Below are positions 27,418-51,328 of a stretch of 64,000 nucleotides of DNA, piece after piece (positions within the stretch are counted from its first letter, which is position 1; every line of letters begins with the position of its first letter). Where the stretch lies: assembly GCF_017301635.1 (NCBI RefSeq), contig NZ_CP071091.1, forward strand, positions 7,432,501-7,496,500. Direction: 5' to 3'. Under the pieces are notes generated by a model, which had not been told where the DNA came from, did not search any database, and was given only the letters and a program-made list of their open reading frames with translations. The stretch comes from Myxococcus landrumus. Its GTDB lineage: Bacteria > Myxococcota > Myxococcia > Myxococcales > Myxococcaceae. The translations under genes were made by a program, and so were the position numbers.

Positions 27418-28452
27418 TCATCCCCGGGGAAAGAGGCGCGCCTGGCGGATGCGGACCGGGAGGGTCTGGCCGGGGCGCACGTCGAGCGGCGGGGCCACCA
27501 CGCGCAGGAGCGTGCCGTCGACGGGGAAGCGGTACTCGGCCGCGTAGCCCAGGAACAGGCGCGCGGAGAGGGGCAGCGGTGTGCCGTGTCCTCCCAGCTC
27601 CAGCTCTTCGGGGCGCACCACCAGCGTGGCGGCGCCGTGCGTCGCGGAGACCTCCGGGGGCAGGGAGAACACTCCGCCGCCGTGGGCGGTGTGGAACGCG
27701 CCGTCGCGCACCTCGCCAGAGAGCACGTTGGCGCCTCCGACGAAGCCCGCGACGAAGGGCGTGGCGGGCTCGCGGTAGAGCGTCTCTGGCGTGGCCACCT
27801 GCTCCAGGACGCCCTGGTTCATCACCGCGATGCGGTCCGACAGCGCGAGCGCCTCGCCCTGGTCATGGGTGACGAAGACGAGGGTGGTGCCCAGCCTCGC
27901 GCGCAGGGCCGCGATTTCGGCGCGCAGCTCTTCTCGCAGCGCCGCGTCCAGGTTGGAGAGGGGCTCGTCGAGCAGCAGCACACGCGGCCCCGCGACCAGG
28001 GCCCTCGCCAGGGCGACGCGCTGGAGCTGTCCCCCGGAGAGCTCATGCGGCTTGCGCGTCGCGAGCTTCTCCAGCCGCACCCAGCGCAGCGCCTCGCTCA
28101 CCTGGGCTGCGAGCGCTGTCTTGGGCATGCGACGCAGCGTCAGCGGATAGGCGACGTTCTCCTCCACCGTGCGGTGGGGCCACACGGCATAGCCCTGGAA
28201 CACCATCCCCAGTCCGCGCCGCTCGGGAGGCACCCGCACGCCGGGCCCGGCCACCACGTCACCGCCGAGACGGAGGACTCCCGCGTCGGGGTGCTCCAGC
28301 CCCGCGAGCATGCGCAGCGTCGTCGTCTTCCCGCAGCCGGACGGACCCAGCAGCGAGACGAGCTCTCCCTCCTGGACCTCCAGGCTCAGGCCGCGCACCA
28401 CGGGCGTGGTGCCGTAGGACTTGAACACGCCCTCCAGCGAGATGGCCGCCAT
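27418..28452 (-). CDS. ABC importer ATP-binding protein, FbpC/PotA type
   Basis: 344 residues. Walker A LLGPSGCGKTTTLRMLAG, Q loop, signature LSGGQLQRVALARAL, Walker B RVLLLDEPLSNLDA, H loop FVTHDQGEA, then a C-terminal TOBE-like region (about 240-344) typical of Fe3+, spermidine and phosphonate importers. The ATG overlaps the stop of the permease gene (TGATG), with GGAGG upstream, so the two are translationally coupled. It should energise the permease encoded just upstream. The substrate is not set by this subunit. Confidence 0.95.
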   Translation of the reverse strand: MAAISLEGVFKSYGTTPVVRGLSLEVQEGELVSLLGPSGCGKTTTLRMLAGLEHPDAGVLRLGGDVVAGPGVRVPPERRGLGMVFQGYAVWPHRTVEENVAYPLTLRRMPKTALAAQVSEALRWVRLEKLATRKPHELSGGQLQRVALARALVAGPRVLLLDEPLSNLDAALREELRAEIAALRARLGTTLVFVTHDQGEALALSDRIAVMNQGVLEQVATPETLYREPATPFVAGFVGGANVLSGEVRDGAFHTAHGGGVFSLPPEVSATHGAATLVVRPEELELGGHGTPLPLSARLFLGYAAEYRFPVDGTLLRVVAPPLDVRPGQTLPVRIRQARLFPRG

Positions 28453-30116
28453 CACCGCGCCTCCGTCGTGCGTCGAGAAACCAGCGCGAGCACGACTTGT
28501 CCCAGCACCACCAGCATCACGAAGGCACAGGCGAGCACCGCCGCCGCCGCGGGGTCCGCATAGCTCTGCAAGTCGAAGAGCAGCTTGCCCAGCACCTCCG
28601 AGCCCGCGGGCACCAGCAGCACGGACATGGTGATTTCCGTCGCGCACGAGAGGAACGCGAGGATGAAGGCCACCGTGAGCGCGGGCCGCAGGAGCGGCAG
28701 GGGCACATCGAGGAAGGCGCGCAGAGGGCTCGCGCCGCTGACCCGCGCCGCCTCCGTCAGCGAGGGGTCCAGTTGCGCCAGCGCCTCCGCGCTGTTGCGA
28801 GTCCCCAGCGCCAGGTACTTCGCCGCGTAGGCCACCAGCAGCAGCCACGGCGTATGCGCCATCGTCAGCACGAAGGCCACCTTGTCCAACAGGATGAAGC
28901 GCCAGTCCCGGGAGAACGCGAGCAGGAGCGCCAGCGCCAGCACCGTGCCCGGCACGGCATAGGGCCACACGGCCAGCGCCTCCACGCCGGCCCCGAGCCG
29001 CCGGAAGGCTCGCTGGAGCATCGCCGACGCCAGGCCGAAGCCACACACCAGCACTCCCGCCCCCGCCGCGAGCAGGAGGCTGAGCCCCGTGGCTCGCAGG
29101 GTGCGAGGCTGCGTCAACACGCTGGCCCAATGCGAGAGCGTCAATTCCTCCCACGCGAGCTGTGCGCCGAAGCCCCGCTGGAGCGAGGTGAGCAGGATGG
29201 CGCCCAGGGGCAACAGCACCAACAAAAGACACACGCTCGAGACACCCACGGTGGCCACCGTCCGCGCGCGGCCCAGCGCGAGAGGCCGCGAGGCCAGTCC
29301 CTTGCCCGCGCTCAACCTCACCCGGCCGGAGCGCCCCAGGGCCCACGTCACGAGCAGCGACAGCGGCGTCAGCGCCAGCAGCACGAGCGCGAGCACACAC
29401 GCCCGTCCCAGTCCTTCATCTCCTTGCAGCACCAGCTCGTAGATGCGCGTGGTGAGCACCCGCGTCGGAGGCGTCGCGGACACGCCCAGCAGATACGGGA
29501 CACCGAAGGATGACGCCGCCATGAGGAACACCATCACCGCGCCGGACAGGAGCGACGGGAGCACCAGCGGCACCGTCGTCGTCAGCAGCGCCCTCACTGG
29601 CGAGGCACCACACACGCGCGCGGCCTCCTCCAGCGCCGGGTCCATCCTGCGCAGCGCCGCCGCGCTCGCGAGCAGCACCAGGGGCAGGCCGGACAGCCCC
29701 TCGACGAAGGCGATGCCCACGGGCCCATGGATGTCGAGGGTGCCTTCCCCCAGCATCCGGTTGAGATAGCCCGCGCGAGGGCTCGCCAATGACAACCAAC
29801 CCATGCCCCAGATGAACGCGGGGATGGCGGAGGGCAGGGTGAAGAGGACGGTGAAGACGCCTCGCATCGGCAGGTCCGTGCGGAACAGCAACAGCGACAG
29901 CGGCGCCCCCAACGCGAGCGCGAGCAGCGCGGCCCCTCCCGAGATGACGAGCGTGTTCCCCAGCGCACCCAGCTCCGAGGCCAGTCCCTCCGTCCCCAGG
30001 TCTCCCGGTGCCCCCGCGCCGCGCGAGAGCAACATCACCACCGGTCCCACGGCGAACACGACCACCGGCACCAGCCACGCGGCCAATCCCAGCCATCGCG
30101 CCGAGGACGTGCTCAT
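28452..30116 (-). CDS. ABC importer fused double permease, FbpB/ThiP type
   Basis: 554 residues with about twelve membrane segments. Two binding-protein-dependent permease modules are fused in one chain; each has an EAA-type coupling loop (EEAARVCGASPVRALLTTTVPLV and a second, TEAARVSGASPLRAF). Fused permeases are typical of iron(III), thiamine and 2-aminoethylphosphonate importers. The ATG at 30116 overlaps the stop of the binding-protein gene (ATGA), and the ATPase gene overlaps its own stop, giving a three-gene coupled operon. Confidence 0.94.
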   Translation of the reverse strand: MSTSSARWLGLAAWLVPVVVFAVGPVVMLLSRGAGAPGDLGTEGLASELGALGNTLVISGGAALLALALGAPLSLLLFRTDLPMRGVFTVLFTLPSAIPAFIWGMGWLSLASPRAGYLNRMLGEGTLDIHGPVGIAFVEGLSGLPLVLLASAAALRRMDPALEEAARVCGASPVRALLTTTVPLVLPSLLSGAVMVFLMAASSFGVPYLLGVSATPPTRVLTTRIYELVLQGDEGLGRACVLALVLLALTPLSLLVTWALGRSGRVRLSAGKGLASRPLALGRARTVATVGVSSVCLLLVLLPLGAILLTSLQRGFGAQLAWEELTLSHWASVLTQPRTLRATGLSLLLAAGAGVLVCGFGLASAMLQRAFRRLGAGVEALAVWPYAVPGTVLALALLLAFSRDWRFILLDKVAFVLTMAHTPWLLLVAYAAKYLALGTRNSAEALAQLDPSLTEAARVSGASPLRAFLDVPLPLLRPALTVAFILAFLSCATEITMSVLLVPAGSEVLGKLLFDLQSYADPAAAAVLACAFVMLVVLGQVVLALVSRRTTEAR

Positions 30117-48216: not shown

Positions 48217-49089
48217 CTACCTCGCGGAGCGGGAGCTGCGGGCCCAGCGAGCCCTCAGGACTTTCGCGAGGCTCTGACGCTGTCTTGCTCCGGAGCGACG
48301 CAGGGGGTCCTGCTTGGAGAGCCAGAATGGGTCGAGCCGCTTTGGATTCTCGCGCACCACGTCGACGAGCGCATCGAGGAGGTTCCGGACACGCTCCGGC
48401 TCCAGTCGCGCGGAGGGGGGCACCACGTTCCACAGTTGTTCCACCACCTGGACGATGCTGCCGTCTTCATAGGTAGCGACCCGGAGCGTGATGGCGAGCG
48501 CGCCGTCTGGGAGCTGTTCCGCGCCCCCCCAGAAGAGGACCGTGGAGTCTGTCTCGAGCGTTGGCAGGCCCTCGAGCCAGTCTTGCAGTGTCTGGGCCGA
48601 GAGCTCCTCGCCGGGAAGGAGGGGTTCATCGACAGTCTCCGCGGGCAAGAGGTCGAGCGCCCGCAGGTTGGGCGTGCCCGTCTGCGAAAAGACGACGGAG
48701 CGGATCCGTTTGCCGTCATCCTTGGCACGGGTCGAGAACACGTCGAGCCGACGTGCTTCCAGGTCGAAGACGTAGACGTAGACCGCCCTTCCGGTCTCGT
48801 CCGGGGTGACTCTCAGGCTGTCGTCCCCCTCTGTGATGCGGTCGCCCTCCGGTTCGTTGGGTCCCGGGATGTAGTGGCGCCAGCCCCAGGGGGCCTCATC
48901 GATGAGCTGGCACACCACGAACTGCATATCGCCTTGCGCGCGCTGAACGTGGGCCATGAGTTCATGCCCGAGGCCAGACGGATGGCCAGCCCAGTGCAGA
49001 TGGACCACCCCACGCCAGGGGCGCTCGGAGACGTGCTTGGGGGCTCCCGAGCCTGACGTGTACACAGCGATTGCGCCTGGAGTCGACAT
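48217..49089 (-). CDS. Conserved-looking protein of unknown function
   Basis: 290 residues with no signal peptide or membrane segment and ordinary composition. It begins MSTPGAIAVYTSGSGAP, has alternating hydrophobic patches (MQFVVCQLIDEAPWGWRHY, RAVYVYVFDLEARRLDVF) and ends in an Arg/Ser-rich tail. I recognise no domain. The Tyr/Val segments (about 95-115) suggest a beta-sandwich core. Start 49089 is an ATG with a weak binding site. Stop lies 43 bases from the stop of the convergent coiled-coil gene. Confidence 0.72.
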   Translation of the reverse strand: MSTPGAIAVYTSGSGAPKHVSERPWRGVVHLHWAGHPSGLGHELMAHVQRAQGDMQFVVCQLIDEAPWGWRHYIPGPNEPEGDRITEGDDSLRVTPDETGRAVYVYVFDLEARRLDVFSTRAKDDGKRIRSVVFSQTGTPNLRALDLLPAETVDEPLLPGEELSAQTLQDWLEGLPTLETDSTVLFWGGAEQLPDGALAITLRVATYEDGSIVQVVEQLWNVVPPSARLEPERVRNLLDALVDVVRENPKRLDPFWLSKQDPLRRSGARQRQSLAKVLRARWARSSRSAR

Positions 49090-49344
49090 GGGATGGCAAG
49101 TGTAACGCGAGAGGTTTCCAGGCCGTTGAAGAATCGCGAACTCCGAGGAGAACACTTGCATCGCTGCCCATTGCCCATCTGTGTGGCGTTGGGTTCCCCC
49201 TGTCCGATGTTCAACTCCCCGTCGCGGGATGCCCCCGAGGTGAAGTGACTGGAGCGCCGGATGTGATTCACTGACACCCGAGGCCTCATCCATCCGCTGT
49301 GGCTCCGTGTGACGGCCCACCGAATCTTTCGGAGGGGAGGCTCC

Positions 49345-49818
49345 ATGCGGAAGCTCCTGGCTTATGCGGGCACGGCGCTGGTCATCGCCGCCGTGCTGTC
49401 GTGGCCGATGGCGGCCCCCTCCTCGGAAGGGGAGCGCCGGCAGGGCGACTACCACGAGGAGTGCCAGAGCGAAGGCTGTGACACCGAGGAGCTGCGGGAG
49501 CTCTATGCCTCCTATGCCTCCGAGTGTCTGGATGAAGGGTGCTCGCCAGAAGAGGTCATCGAGCTGGCGGGGCATCCGGATGCCGTGGACGCGATGCGCG
49601 CGGCCTTCCAGCAACACGGCTGGAGGATAGACCCCAAGCACTTCCCCGCGTGCCGGCTGGAGCTGACGGAGACGTCGTGCGCCTTGCTGGCCCTGCTCTG
49701 CAAGGACCACTACCTGTGCCTGGATGGCGCGCAGGAGAGCGCCTGGTACGGCTGCGGCTTCTGCGTGGGAATCGGCTCATGCGCGGCGGGCGGGGGCAGC
49801 GAGAAGTGGGTGCCGTGA
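49345..49818 (+). CDS. Secreted 11-Cys protein, first gene of HTTM-like cassette
   Basis: 157 residues. Start 49345 has a very strong GGAGGGGAGG site. A signal-type N terminus (LLAYAGTALVIAAVLSW) precedes a mature region with 11 Cys and many Glu: EECQSEGCDTEELRELY, ECLDEGCSPEEVIEL, ACRLELTETSCALLALLC and YGCGFCVGIGSC. No lipobox is obvious, so it is probably exported as a soluble disulphide-rich protein. Its stop overlaps the next ATG (TGATG). The Glu- and Cys-rich composition next to an HTTM-like membrane gene raises the idea of a modified substrate. Confidence 0.82.
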   Translation: MRKLLAYAGTALVIAAVLSWPMAAPSSEGERRQGDYHEECQSEGCDTEELRELYASYASECLDEGCSPEEVIELAGHPDAVDAMRAAFQQHGWRIDPKHFPACRLELTETSCALLALLCKDHYLCLDGAQESAWYGCGFCVGIGSCAAGGGSEKWVP

Positions 49819-50408
49819 TGACGGAGTCCACGCCTTGGCGTGAGCGGCTGTTGGCGATGTGCGCGCCCGCGTTGCTGGTGCTGGTGGCGGCTGTTCATCT
49901 CTACCTCGTGGAGTCGAAGGGGCTGTCCCCGTGGAAGGGAGGCGGCTTCGGGATGTTCTCCACGGTGGACTCGCCCAGTGCTCGCTTCCTCCGGGTGTAC
50001 CTGGTGGAGGGTGCATCGGAGGTGCAGGTCCGCCTGCCCGACCGGATGAAGGAGCTGGGCTACGACGTCCGCGTGTTGCCGACGCACGATGCGCTGGAGG
50101 GACTCGCGACCCGGGTCGCGAATGGAACCTGGGTGCCCGAGCGGCTGGCCTCCGCCGTCACGCGCTACCAGGCGCTCCTCGCGGAGGGCGTCGAGCAGGC
50201 GCCCGGGGGCTCCGAGGTGGGGCGCGTCGACTTCATGGGCGTGCGCCTCCTGCGCATGCTGGAGCCTGGCGAGCCACCGCCTCCCCTCGGCCGGGCGCAT
50301 GTCTTCCAGCGCGTGCGCGTGGAGTTGTGGACGTTCCGGTTCGAGCCGTCCTCGGCGAGGCTGGTCGCCACCCGGCTGGCGGAGGCGAGCGCGGAGGTGC
50401 CGCCATGA
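49818..50408 (+). CDS. Membrane-anchored protein, second gene of HTTM-like cassette
   Basis: 196 residues. One N-terminal membrane helix (LLAMCAPALLVLVAAVHLYLV) then a soluble domain with KGLSPWKGGGFGMFSTVDSP, a pattern I associate with proteins encoded beside HTTM (vitamin K-dependent carboxylase-like) membrane proteins. The remainder is an alpha+beta domain (FMGVRLLRMLEPGEPPPPLGRA). The ATG overlaps the preceding stop (TGATG) and its own stop overlaps the next ATG (ATGA), so the three genes are translationally coupled. Function unknown. Confidence 0.8.
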   Translation: MTESTPWRERLLAMCAPALLVLVAAVHLYLVESKGLSPWKGGGFGMFSTVDSPSARFLRVYLVEGASEVQVRLPDRMKELGYDVRVLPTHDALEGLATRVANGTWVPERLASAVTRYQALLAEGVEQAPGGSEVGRVDFMGVRLLRMLEPGEPPPPLGRAHVFQRVRVELWTFRFEPSSARLVATRLAEASAEVPP

Positions 50409-51328
50409 GCCACGCCATTCCAGGAGAGGCTCCAGCGACATCCGCGCCGGCGAGGTCCTGGAGCGACGAGCTGCTCGCGAGCCTGCACGTCGACCGGTTC
50501 GAGCTCTGCGCCACGATGTCGCTGCTGCTCTTGATGCTCTATTCGAGCGGGGCCTTGCGGGTGAGGATTCCGCTGACCCTGGTCGCGGTGCTCGGGTTGC
50601 TGTTGCCCCGGCTCAAGCGCGAGCCGATGCTGTGGTTCATCGCCTTCGTCATCACGCTGGTGGGCACCTTCCAGGAGCGCTTCGAGGCGGACAATCACAA
50701 GTACCTCTTGAGCTACTGGTGTCTGGCCTTGTTCTGCGCGGCCTGCGCACGTGAGCCGGAGCGCGTCCTGGCCGTGAGTGCCCGAGCACTGGTGGGCGGG
50801 TGTTTCGCCTTCGCGGTGTTCTGGAAGCTCATCTCGGAGGACTACCTGGACGGGAGCTTCTTCCGCTACGCGCTGTTGCAGGACCCGCGCTTTCAGACGG
50901 TGGGGCAGGGCGTGGGACAGGTGACGGACGCCATGGCCGAGCTCAACACCGCGGCGCTGCACGCGTTGACGAACTACGACAGCACGTTGGGTTCGGTGCA
51001 GCTCGTCTCGACGCCGGCCGTGGACGGGCTGGCGACCCTGATGACGAGGTGGACGCTGGGAATCGAGCTCGCGGTCTCGCTGGCGTTCCTCGTCCCGATG
51101 CGAGGCGCGGTGGCGAGGAGTCGGGACGTGCTGTTGTTGGTGTTCGTCCTGTCGACCTATGCGCTCGCGCCCGTGCTGGGGTTCGGCTGGGTCCTGCTCA
51201 TCATGGGGCTGGCACAGTGCGAGGAGGACTCCCGGCTGTTTCCGGTGCTCTACCTGTTGGCCTTCGTCTGCCTCCAGGTCTACCGCTTCCCCTGGGGCTC
51301 GCTGCTCCAGGGGGGAGGACTGGCCTGA
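50405..51328 (+). CDS. HTTM-like polytopic membrane protein
   Basis: 307 residues with about eight hydrophobic helices (SLLLLMLYSSGALRV, MLWFIAFVITLVG, LVGGCFAFAVFWKLISEDYLDGS, LGIELAVSLAFLV). The segment FAFAVFWKLISEDYLDGSFFRYALL resembles the central motif of HTTM/DoxX-type proteins. HTTM domains are found in vitamin K-dependent gamma-carboxylase and its bacterial relatives. The catalytic residues of the carboxylase cannot be judged by eye. It is the third member of a coupled cassette with an exported Cys-rich protein. Confidence 0.8.
   Translation: MSHAIPGEAPATSAPARSWSDELLASLHVDRFELCATMSLLLLMLYSSGALRVRIPLTLVAVLGLLLPRLKREPMLWFIAFVITLVGTFQERFEADNHKYLLSYWCLALFCAACAREPERVLAVSARALVGGCFAFAVFWKLISEDYLDGSFFRYALLQDPRFQTVGQGVGQVTDAMAELNTAALHALTNYDSTLGSVQLVSTPAVDGLATLMTRWTLGIELAVSLAFLVPMRGAVARSRDVLLLVFVLSTYALAPVLGFGWVLLIMGLAQCEEDSRLFPVLYLLAFVCLQVYRFPWGSLLQGGGLA

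What the first reader, a model, noticed from the sequence alone, without database searches (positions are those of the whole stretch)
49345..51328. Coupled cassette: secreted Cys/Glu-rich protein, anchored protein and HTTM-like membrane protein
Three genes overlap by TGATG and ATGA. The first encodes an exported protein with 11 Cys and Glu-rich segments, the third an HTTM-like polytopic protein. HTTM domains occur in gamma-glutamyl carboxylase. A modification or anchoring system acting on the first gene product is a reasonable, unproven model.
Basis: inference. Interest (0 to 1): 0.6.

Follow-up and report, generated by a model that had tools for sequence, protein, structure and literature searches.

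The report
SdpAB-like cassette with Gla-like precursor
Three overlapping genes in a soil bacterium look like a distant cousin of known peptide-toxin production operons: a small exported protein plus two membrane proteins that probably process it, with hints, not proof, of kinship to the vitamin K carboxylase that modifies blood-clotting proteins.

Summary
Genes 49345-49818, 49818-50408 and 50405-51328 (+) overlap by TGATG and ATGA, are syntenic in three related genomes and evolve under purifying selection. They are rare: genes 1 and 3 in 3 of 195 genomes of the phylum, gene 2 in 3 of 145 of the order. Genes 2 and 3 recur as a pair on a Deinococcus plasmid, and degraded on another.

No curated model reaches its cut-off for any of the three. 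Best reading: a diverged SdpCAB-like cassette (exported precursor, one-helix partner, HTTM-type membrane protein), in the gene order of canonical myxobacterial sdp loci. Gene 3 has the Lys/DG signature of SdpB and an NHxYL motif like that of vitamin K carboxylase, but its profile scores are borderline and its structure model, whose best matches are GGCX, is partly circular. Gene 2 shares a motif with SdpA-type partners.

The carboxylase idea gains one point: gene 1 has two ExxxExC motifs and gives 2 of only 3 weak Gla matches in 145 genomes. It stays unproven: scores are sub-threshold, gene 3 does not match a carboxylase profile, and the best Gla match is an unrelated protein. New variant of a known kind, probably maturing a secreted peptide.

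The parts
49345..49818 (+). Gene 1: exported Cys/Glu-rich precursor, 157 aa, signal-like N-terminus
   Evidence: of 195 Myxococcota genomes searched, found in the own genome and 2 others, plus one weak 50-residue match in a fourth
49459..49479 (+). first ExxxExC motif of gene 1 (residues 39-45, ECQSEGC)
   Evidence: inside the Pfam Gla stretch 31-55
49522..49542 (+). second ExxxExC motif of gene 1 (residues 60-66, ECLDEGC)
49651..49782 (+). C-terminal Cys-rich, partly hydrophobic part of gene 1 (residues 103-146, 7 Cys); candidate mature peptide (inference)
49818..50408 (+). Gene 2: single-TM partner, 196 aa, SdpA-like topology
49938..49964 (+). GGGFGMFST motif of gene 2 (residues 41-49), starting shortly after the TM; FGMYA in Deinococcus
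50405..51328 (+). Gene 3: polytopic HTTM/SdpB-like membrane protein, 307 aa
50696..50698 (+). His98 of gene 3 (ADNHKYLL), invariant in 5 of 5 homologues; looks like the NHxYL motif of GGCX
50825..50827 (+). Lys141 of gene 3 (WKLISEDYLDG), invariant in 5 of 5 homologues and in all 30 rows of A6
48217..49092 (-). divergent 291-aa gene that travels with the trio; no Pfam or PADLOC match; role unknown

Best explanation
A three-gene cassette that makes a secreted peptide and works like, but has diverged far from, the SdpC-SdpA-SdpB system. Gene 1 is an exported precursor (signal peptide, Glu-rich pro-region with two C-x4-C units, Cys-rich, partly hydrophobic C-terminus). Gene 2 is the single-TM partner (SdpA role) and gene 3 the HTTM-type membrane subunit (SdpB role). 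Together, genes 2 and 3 form an exoplasmic maturation complex that modifies, or enables processing of, gene 1. The product is probably an antagonistic peptide. SHOWN: overlapping genes, co-conservation, purifying selection, recurrence of the gene 2-3 pair in Deinococcus, accessory genomic site. INFERRED: HTTM fold of gene 3, SdpA role of gene 2, gene 1 as substrate, antagonism, and the chemistry.
For: Order and coupling: in 14 of 14 canonical myxobacterial SdpB loci examined, an SdpA-position ORF lies directly upstream and overlaps SdpB by 7 nt, with the starts I chose; in 13 of 14 an SdpC-position ORF precedes it after my GC3 filter. Models were run on one of these loci only, L042: TIGR04032 2e-52, TIGR04034 1.9e-63, TIGR04033 1.7e-140. 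The order is the finding's own, C-A-B. Gene 3: merged SdpB-class profile E 0.0049, against a best null of 0.043 in 40 block shuffles and 0.018 reversed. With the SdpB profile the two Deinococcus homologues score 0.0068 and 0.18, against 0.52 for the best reversed decoy. MAFFT places K141 and the DG on the SdpB K and DG in all three alignments. AF2 gave pLDDT 69, pTM 0.65 with the SdpB-class alignment, against 36 and 0.23 without. The seven best VIA rows are all GGCX entries, Z 10.3-11.4, next 7.3. Gene 2: aromatic-x-[FLM]-[FYM]-[AST] motif after the TM in 5 of 5, and in 27 of 29 SdpA-type partners (14/14, 8/9, 5/6); background 0.02-0.04 per 200 aa. Site: two of four related genomes examined lack the 3.2 kb at this site and a third holds an RHS gene there, as expected of a swappable antagonism cargo. 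B. subtilis SdpA and SdpB are required to process SdpC, and the C-terminal part of the paralogue YitM is unrelated to the SDP toxin (PMC6818787, passages), so an unrecognisable precursor is expected.
Against: No Pfam, NCBIfam or PADLOC model reaches a cut-off for any of the three genes. TIGR04033 finds nothing in this genome at E<=0.001. Gene 3 against the VKGC profile: E 0.45, worse than its reversed control (0.058); against a single VKGC sequence 0.58. Gene 3 against the two other HTTM classes: 0.025 and 0.31; against its own reverse 0.02, and against reversed SdpB 0.072. In hmmsearch the window protein itself scores 12 with the SdpB profile, below several reversed decoys, and with the merged profile ranks 1201st of 1225. 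hhalign gives gene 2 against SdpA E 0.14, class E 0.099 and class D 0.039, the last not over the motif; reversed controls 0.15-0.8. The usable structure model used SdpB-class rows, so its GGCX match is partly circular. Foldseek itself listed no GGCX in its best 50. The motif spacer in gene 2 (13-16) is shorter than in the partners (27-30), and I wrote that motif after seeing the sequences. No SdpI/SdpR-like gene was recognised among the neighbours scanned with Pfam.
Confidence: 0.55

Rival explanations
1. Menaquinol-dependent gamma-carboxylation: gene 3 with gene 2 is a two-subunit relative of vitamin K-dependent carboxylase that turns glutamates of the gene 1 Gla-like motifs into Gla, giving a calcium- or metal-binding secreted protein.
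For: Pfam Gla matches gene 1 at E 1.2e-4 (two stretches) and one orthologue at 8.6e-4; 0 of 9 shuffles of the mature part matched Gla. The Gla model run blind on 145 genomes gave 3 matches at E<=0.1, two of them gene 1. Gene 3 has NHxYL and K...DG motifs resembling those at His160 and Lys218 of GGCX (positions by my count), which a review calls essential for activity (PMC9146348, passages). The genome has a VKOR-family protein. The 24 VKGC homologues that my script extracted (of 30 loci tried) all carry a comparable W-R-V-M-[AT] motif 18-20 residues after the last TM.
Against: Gla score 22.6 is below the gathering score of 27 and the best single stretch covers 25 of 41 positions. The best of the three blind hits is an unrelated protein with no HTTM relative in the 14 kb around it, so such scores do arise by chance; the third orthologue of gene 1 did not reach E 0.1. 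Gene 3 does not align to a VKGC profile, and neither gene 2 nor SdpA aligns to the VKGC C-terminal part. A true VKGC homologue exists elsewhere in the genome (L001). No gene 1 homologue was found in the plasmid collection that holds the Deinococcus pairs.
Confidence: 0.15
2. Other chemistry on an exported peptide by an HTTM-type protein (disulfide formation, epimerisation, dehydration or proteolytic trimming), as HTTM proteins also occur in linaridin clusters.
For: An HTTM gene (crdG) lies in the corynaridin linaridin cluster, mechanism unclear (PMC9927463, one passage). Gene 1 has 11 Cys. On the D. taeanensis plasmid the gene 2-3 pair lies beside an M3 peptidase and a 44-aa exported CC peptide that is also found in D. 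grandis.
Against: No direct evidence for any one chemistry; neither partner gene matched an enzyme family.
Confidence: 0.2
3. Gene 3 is an unrelated polytopic membrane protein (for example transporter or anchor) and its K...DG likeness to SdpB is coincidence; the trio is an envelope protein complex with gene 1 as a structural secreted protein.
For: Borderline profile scores; no curated match.
Against: Motifs aligned in order with SdpB, independent alignment of K and DG, and GGCX well above other VIA rows.
Confidence: 0.1

Closest known systems
SdpABC / YitPOM peptide-toxin system (TIGR04032, TIGR04033, TIGR04034, PF17418)
   Same: exported precursor, single-TM partner and polytopic HTTM-type protein, translationally coupled; same C-A-B order as the myxobacterial sdp loci examined; aromatic motif after the partner's TM; K...DG motif in the membrane protein
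   Different: no model match for any of the three; precursor unrelated; His at the TM4 entry (NHKYL, or GGH in Deinococcus) where SdpB has GDQ; shorter linker in the partner; no recognised SdpI/SdpR
Vitamin K-dependent gamma-carboxylase (GGCX) and bacterial VKGC homologues (PF05090), e.g. L001 in the same genome
   Same: NHxYL and K...(D/E)G motifs; predicted core resembles GGCX in the threaded model
   Different: 307 aa instead of 474 (L001) to about 760 aa; no lumenal domain in the same chain; not matched by PF05090 nor by a VKGC profile
Gla domain (PF00594)
   Same: two ExxxExC motifs with C-x4-C; 13 Glu in 46 residues
   Different: below the gathering score; only part of the profile is matched; the [ERK] position of the PROSITE pattern (recalled) is Ser or Asp here; no known propeptide
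Linaridin clusters with an HTTM protein (crdG of corynaridin; one passage seen)
   Same: HTTM-type protein in a peptide cluster
   Different: no linaridin modification genes were recognised in this cassette

Membership tests
SdpABC system | SdpB model TIGR04033 over cut-off for gene 3 | tested here: not met
   no NCBIfam match; none in the own genome
SdpABC system | SdpA (TIGR04034/PF17418) for gene 2 and SdpC (TIGR04032) for gene 1 | tested here: not met
   no match, while L042 proteins match strongly
SdpABC system | coupled genes: exported precursor, single-TM partner, polytopic protein | tested here: met
SdpABC system | precursor with signal and C-terminal hydrophobic toxin part | tested here: inconclusive
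   signal clear; C-terminal hydropathy peaks only moderate, 1.06-1.19
SdpABC system | partner proteins needed for toxin processing | not testable with these tools
   needs gene removal and mass spectrometry
HTTM superfamily (PF05090) | PF05090 over gathering score for gene 3 | tested here: not met
   PF05090 finds only L001 in this genome. Note that SdpB of L042 scores 23.9, also under the 27.7 cut-off
HTTM superfamily (PF05090) | HTTM fold | tested here: inconclusive
   threaded model, GGCX Z 10.3-11.4, but the alignment contained SdpB-class rows; Foldseek E no better than 0.098; model from 3 orthologues unusable
HTTM superfamily (PF05090) | profile homology to the VKGC membrane domain | tested here: not met
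   E 0.45; SdpB, class D and class E do meet it (1.5e-8, 1.2e-5, 9.7e-7)
Gla-domain substrate of a gamma-carboxylase | PF00594 over gathering score | tested here: not met
   22.6 of 27 bits; 0 of 145 genomes of the order over the cut-off
Gla-domain substrate of a gamma-carboxylase | ExxxExC core motif (recalled) | tested here: met
   twice, residues 39-45 and 60-66
Gla-domain substrate of a gamma-carboxylase | carboxylated Glu in the product | not testable with these tools
   needs mass spectrometry

The most novel reading that the evidence does not exclude
Genes 2 and 3 form a split, bacterial, menaquinol-dependent gamma-carboxylase (HTTM subunit with His98 and Lys141 as the catalytic pair, gene 2 as its detached exoplasmic module) with a dedicated substrate of two Gla-like motifs in the same operon. 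By extension, the SdpA/SdpB class would be the same kind of split enzyme. This would give cannibalism-toxin maturation a chemistry and would be a self-contained Gla system in a bacterium.
Probability: 0.1. Interest if true: 0.92.

Novelty: new variant of a known kind. Interest (0 to 1): 0.55.

Why it matters
What SdpA and SdpB do chemically was not stated in anything I saw (listings, passages). A diverged relative that keeps a His/Lys pair resembling that of GGCX, and whose presumed substrate carries Gla-like motifs, makes one answer directly testable with a single mass measurement. The shared motif after the TM helix of three partner families whose profiles do not clearly match each other also gives a handle for finding further peptide-maturation cassettes.

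Tried and rejected
Simple family assignment: nothing over a cut-off. More homologues: genome-contig scans with gene 3 and its Deinococcus homologue found none; viral-contig scans with the gene 3 and gene 2 alignments found none; phages none for gene 3 (genes 1 and 2 were not run there); plasmids two Deinococcus records for gene 3, one for gene 2, none for gene 1. PDB by sequence: none for gene 3. For gene 1 there were weak hits that include Gla domains of factors X, VII and IX at E 0.16-1.5 and factor X at 0.29, ranked below unrelated proteins (0.035-0.097 and 0.031-0.032). For gene 2 one chance hit at 2.2.

AF2 of gene 3 from its three orthologues was unusable. The idea that SdpA and gene 2 are the VKGC C-terminal domain got no profile support and only motif-and-spacing support, so it is kept as a hypothesis. 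A promoter/terminator scan found nothing. A fixed core operon of the genus was rejected: two related genomes lack the trio at the same site.

Rows dropped: alignment A6 used 12 of the 14 SdpB proteins (L043 and L045 left out as near-duplicates); the locus fragment L055 was left out of the 30 SdpB-model loci; of 30 PF05090 loci tried my script kept 24, by a filter that itself required the NHxY and K motifs.

Papers: passages of PMC6818787, PMC3924187, PMC9146348 and PMC9927463 were seen. The others were seen only in search listings. Perez Morales 2013 was seen only as a reference (not held). Searches: SdpB with vitamin K-dependent, 0 papers; HTTM with bacteriocin, 1; HTTM with gamma-glutamyl carboxylase, 1; Leptospira with carboxylase and gamma-carboxyglutamic acid, 1, not relevant by its abstract; linaridin epimerase, listing not useful.
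Full report
WHAT IS THERE. Three genes on the + strand, 49345-49818, 49818-50408 and 50405-51328, overlap as TGATG and ATGA. Gene 1 (157 aa) starts with a signal-like helix and has 11 Cys; I count 13 Glu in residues 28-73. Two units spaced 21 residues apart read ECQSEGCDTEE and ECLDEGCSPEE; the C-terminal part has seven Cys and moderate hydropathy peaks. Gene 2 (196 aa) has a single N-terminal TM helix and gene 3 (307 aa) about seven or eight.

REALITY AND SPREAD. The own genome is counted in each number here. Gene 3 was found in 3 of 117 genomes of the order and, as a 5-row profile, in 3 of 195 of the phylum. Gene 2 was found at high score in the same 3 of 145 (the other 36 genomes listed at E<=0.1 are weak, E 0.004 or worse). 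Gene 1 was found in the same 3 of 195, plus one weak 50-residue match in a fourth. Identity to the window is 95-96% (gene 1), 90-91% (gene 2) and 95-96% (gene 3). dN/dS is 0.05-0.39 over nine pairwise values, so all three are kept as proteins.

GENOMIC SITE. Of 27 genomes of the genus, 9 have the downstream GNAT gene at E<=1e-30: the three with the trio and six without. I fetched the stretch in four of those six. Two (L118, L119) have the upstream 185-aa gene directly followed by the GNAT gene, with neither trio nor the 291-aa divergent gene. One (L117) has about 5.9 kb there instead, with a 1228-aa RHS-repeat protein (PF05593 2e-81) and a 676-aa ORF. In one (L120) only the GNAT gene matched. 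So the trio and its divergent neighbour form an accessory insert. That a sister genome holds an RHS protein, a class that often carries toxins (general knowledge), fits antagonism but does not prove it.

DEINOCOCCUS. A D. taeanensis plasmid has genes 2 and 3 as an overlapping pair (L039; gene 3 28.8% identity, E 7e-20; gene 2 E 0.02). In D. grandis (L040) gene 3 matches at 31.7%, E 9e-20, but the gene 2 frame has a stop and a transposase follows gene 3, so the locus looks degraded. Both loci carry, on the other strand, an M3-type peptidase (PF01432 1.2e-15 in L039; two ORFs in D. grandis), a similar 582-aa protein (only sub-threshold TPR matches, L039) and a conserved 44-aa peptide with signal and CC. 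No gene 1 homologue was found in the plasmid collection. So the 2-3 pair is the conserved unit, again next to an exported Cys-containing peptide.

WHAT IT RESEMBLES. TIGR04033 (SdpB) was run on 195 Myxococcota genomes: 58 matched at E<=0.001, 14 over the cut-off, the own genome not at all. I examined 29 of the 30 loci it gave (L041-L070 without the fragment L055). In all 29 a partner ORF ends between 60 nt before and 40 nt after the start that I chose for the membrane gene: 14 SdpB loci (overlap 7 nt), 9 'class D' loci (one partner scanned: DUF5819) and 6 'class E' loci (overlap 4 nt). An upstream precursor-like ORF (GC3-filtered) was seen in 13 of 14 SdpB and 6 of 6 class E loci. L042 was checked by models and is SdpC-SdpA-SdpB. 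The finding therefore has the architecture and gene order of these cassettes.

GENE 3 TESTS. hhalign against SdpB E 0.0062, class D 0.025, class E 0.31 and one VKGC 0.58; merged class 0.0049; VKGC profile of 24 sequences 0.45, with 0.058 for gene 3 reversed. Nulls: merged class reversed 0.018, best of 40 block shuffles 0.043; SdpB reversed 0.072, gene 3 against its own reverse 0.02. hmmsearch with SdpB: Deinococcus homologues 0.0068 and 0.18, the three myxobacterial ones 2.7, 4.1 and 12, best reversed decoy 0.52; with the merged, class D and class E profiles the window protein scores like noise. SdpB, class D and class E themselves match the VKGC profile (1.5e-8, 1.2e-5, 9.7e-7). MAFFT puts gene 3 K141, D149 and G150 on the K and DG of SdpB in three alignments, and K141 and G150 are invariant over the 30 rows of A6. 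H98 is invariant in the five homologues; the SdpB rows have no His there. GGCX has NNHSYL and VKKLDADWVEG in the alignment, where by my count the His is 160 and the second Lys 218. AF2 with A6 gave pLDDT 69, pTM 0.65, against 36 and 0.23 with orthologues only. VIA-align ranks seven GGCX entries first (Z 10.3-11.4, 201-218 residues, rmsd 3.6-6.3), next Z 7.3. The tool warns that helical bundles under about Z 13 may share only a common arrangement; Foldseek lists no GGCX in its first 50; and the alignment contained HTTM-class rows. I read this as compatibility, not proof.

GENE 2 TESTS. Profile comparison with SdpA (0.14), class D (0.039) and class E (0.099) is near the reversed controls (0.15-0.8), and with the VKGC C-terminus it is 0.24. 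A motif is shared: [FWY]x[FLM][FYM][AST] lies 27-30 residues after the TM in 27 of 29 partners (14/14 SdpA, 8/9 class D, 5/6 class E) and 13-16 residues after it in 5 of 5 gene 2 homologues; background 0.02-0.04 per 200 aa. The motif was written after looking at these sequences, so the background understates chance. The 24 VKGC homologues kept have WRVM[AT] 18-20 residues after the last TM, 24 of 24.

GENE 1 AND GLA. Pfam Gla: E 1.2e-4, 22.6 bits, cut-off 27, two stretches; an orthologue 8.6e-4. Nine shuffles of the mature part gave no Gla match; the best match to any family was 0.0069. Blind six-frame scan of 145 genomes: 3 matches at E<=0.1, none over the cut-off; two are gene 1 (own genome 0.068, G074 0.067) and the best (0.0305) is an unrelated Cys-rich protein in G008 with no HTTM relative in the 14 kb fetched around it. 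The third orthologue (G084) did not reach 0.1. Of 14 control genomes none rang at E<=0.1, but 4 did at E<=1. The genome has a VKOR-family protein (1.1e-15) and a true VKGC homologue (L001; 1.4e-37 to GGCX over residues 9-456), neither next to the trio.

MECHANISM AND VERDICT. Most likely: gene 1 is exported and genes 2 and 3 mature it at the outer face of the inner membrane, as SdpA and SdpB are required to process SdpC (PMC6818787, passages). The chemistry is unknown. Carboxylation is a live minority option (0.15), other modification 0.2, an unrelated membrane protein 0.1. It works like an Sdp/HTTM peptide-maturation cassette; it is not a member of SdpA, SdpB, SdpC, HTTM or Gla by any curated threshold.

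Noticed in passing
L001 910-2334 (genome 10.11 Mb, - strand): A 474-aa true homologue of vitamin K-dependent carboxylase, including the lumenal part (E 1.4e-37 to GGCX). PF05090 matches occur in 69 of 145 genomes of the order at E<=1e-5.
   Followed up: partly
L056-L070 (without L055): Further HTTM cassettes with single-TM partners (class D, one scanned partner is DUF5819; class E, no family). The class E ones follow small ORFs, e.g. the Gly/Cys-rich 116-aa protein of L066.
   Followed up: partly
L117 4858-10593: RHS-repeat protein with a C-terminal HAE...PCPGHC deaminase-like motif (motif recalled), followed by a 676-aa ORF, at the site that holds the trio in the window.
   Followed up: partly
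L039 2581-2712 (-) and L040 2563-2694 (-): Conserved 44-aa exported peptide with CC, not in the gene tables, between an M3-type peptidase and a 582-aa protein on two Deinococcus plasmids, next to the gene 2-3 pair: possibly a peptide-signal or bacteriocin locus.
   Followed up: partly
28001-30000: AT skew of 0.286 in this 2-kb bin, the largest absolute value of the 32 bins.
   Followed up: no
L123 6760-7512 (-): Cys-rich protein whose C-terminus (NRECVEERCPF) gives the best Gla-model E-value in 145 genomes without an HTTM relative in the 14 kb around it; a useful warning control.
   Followed up: yes
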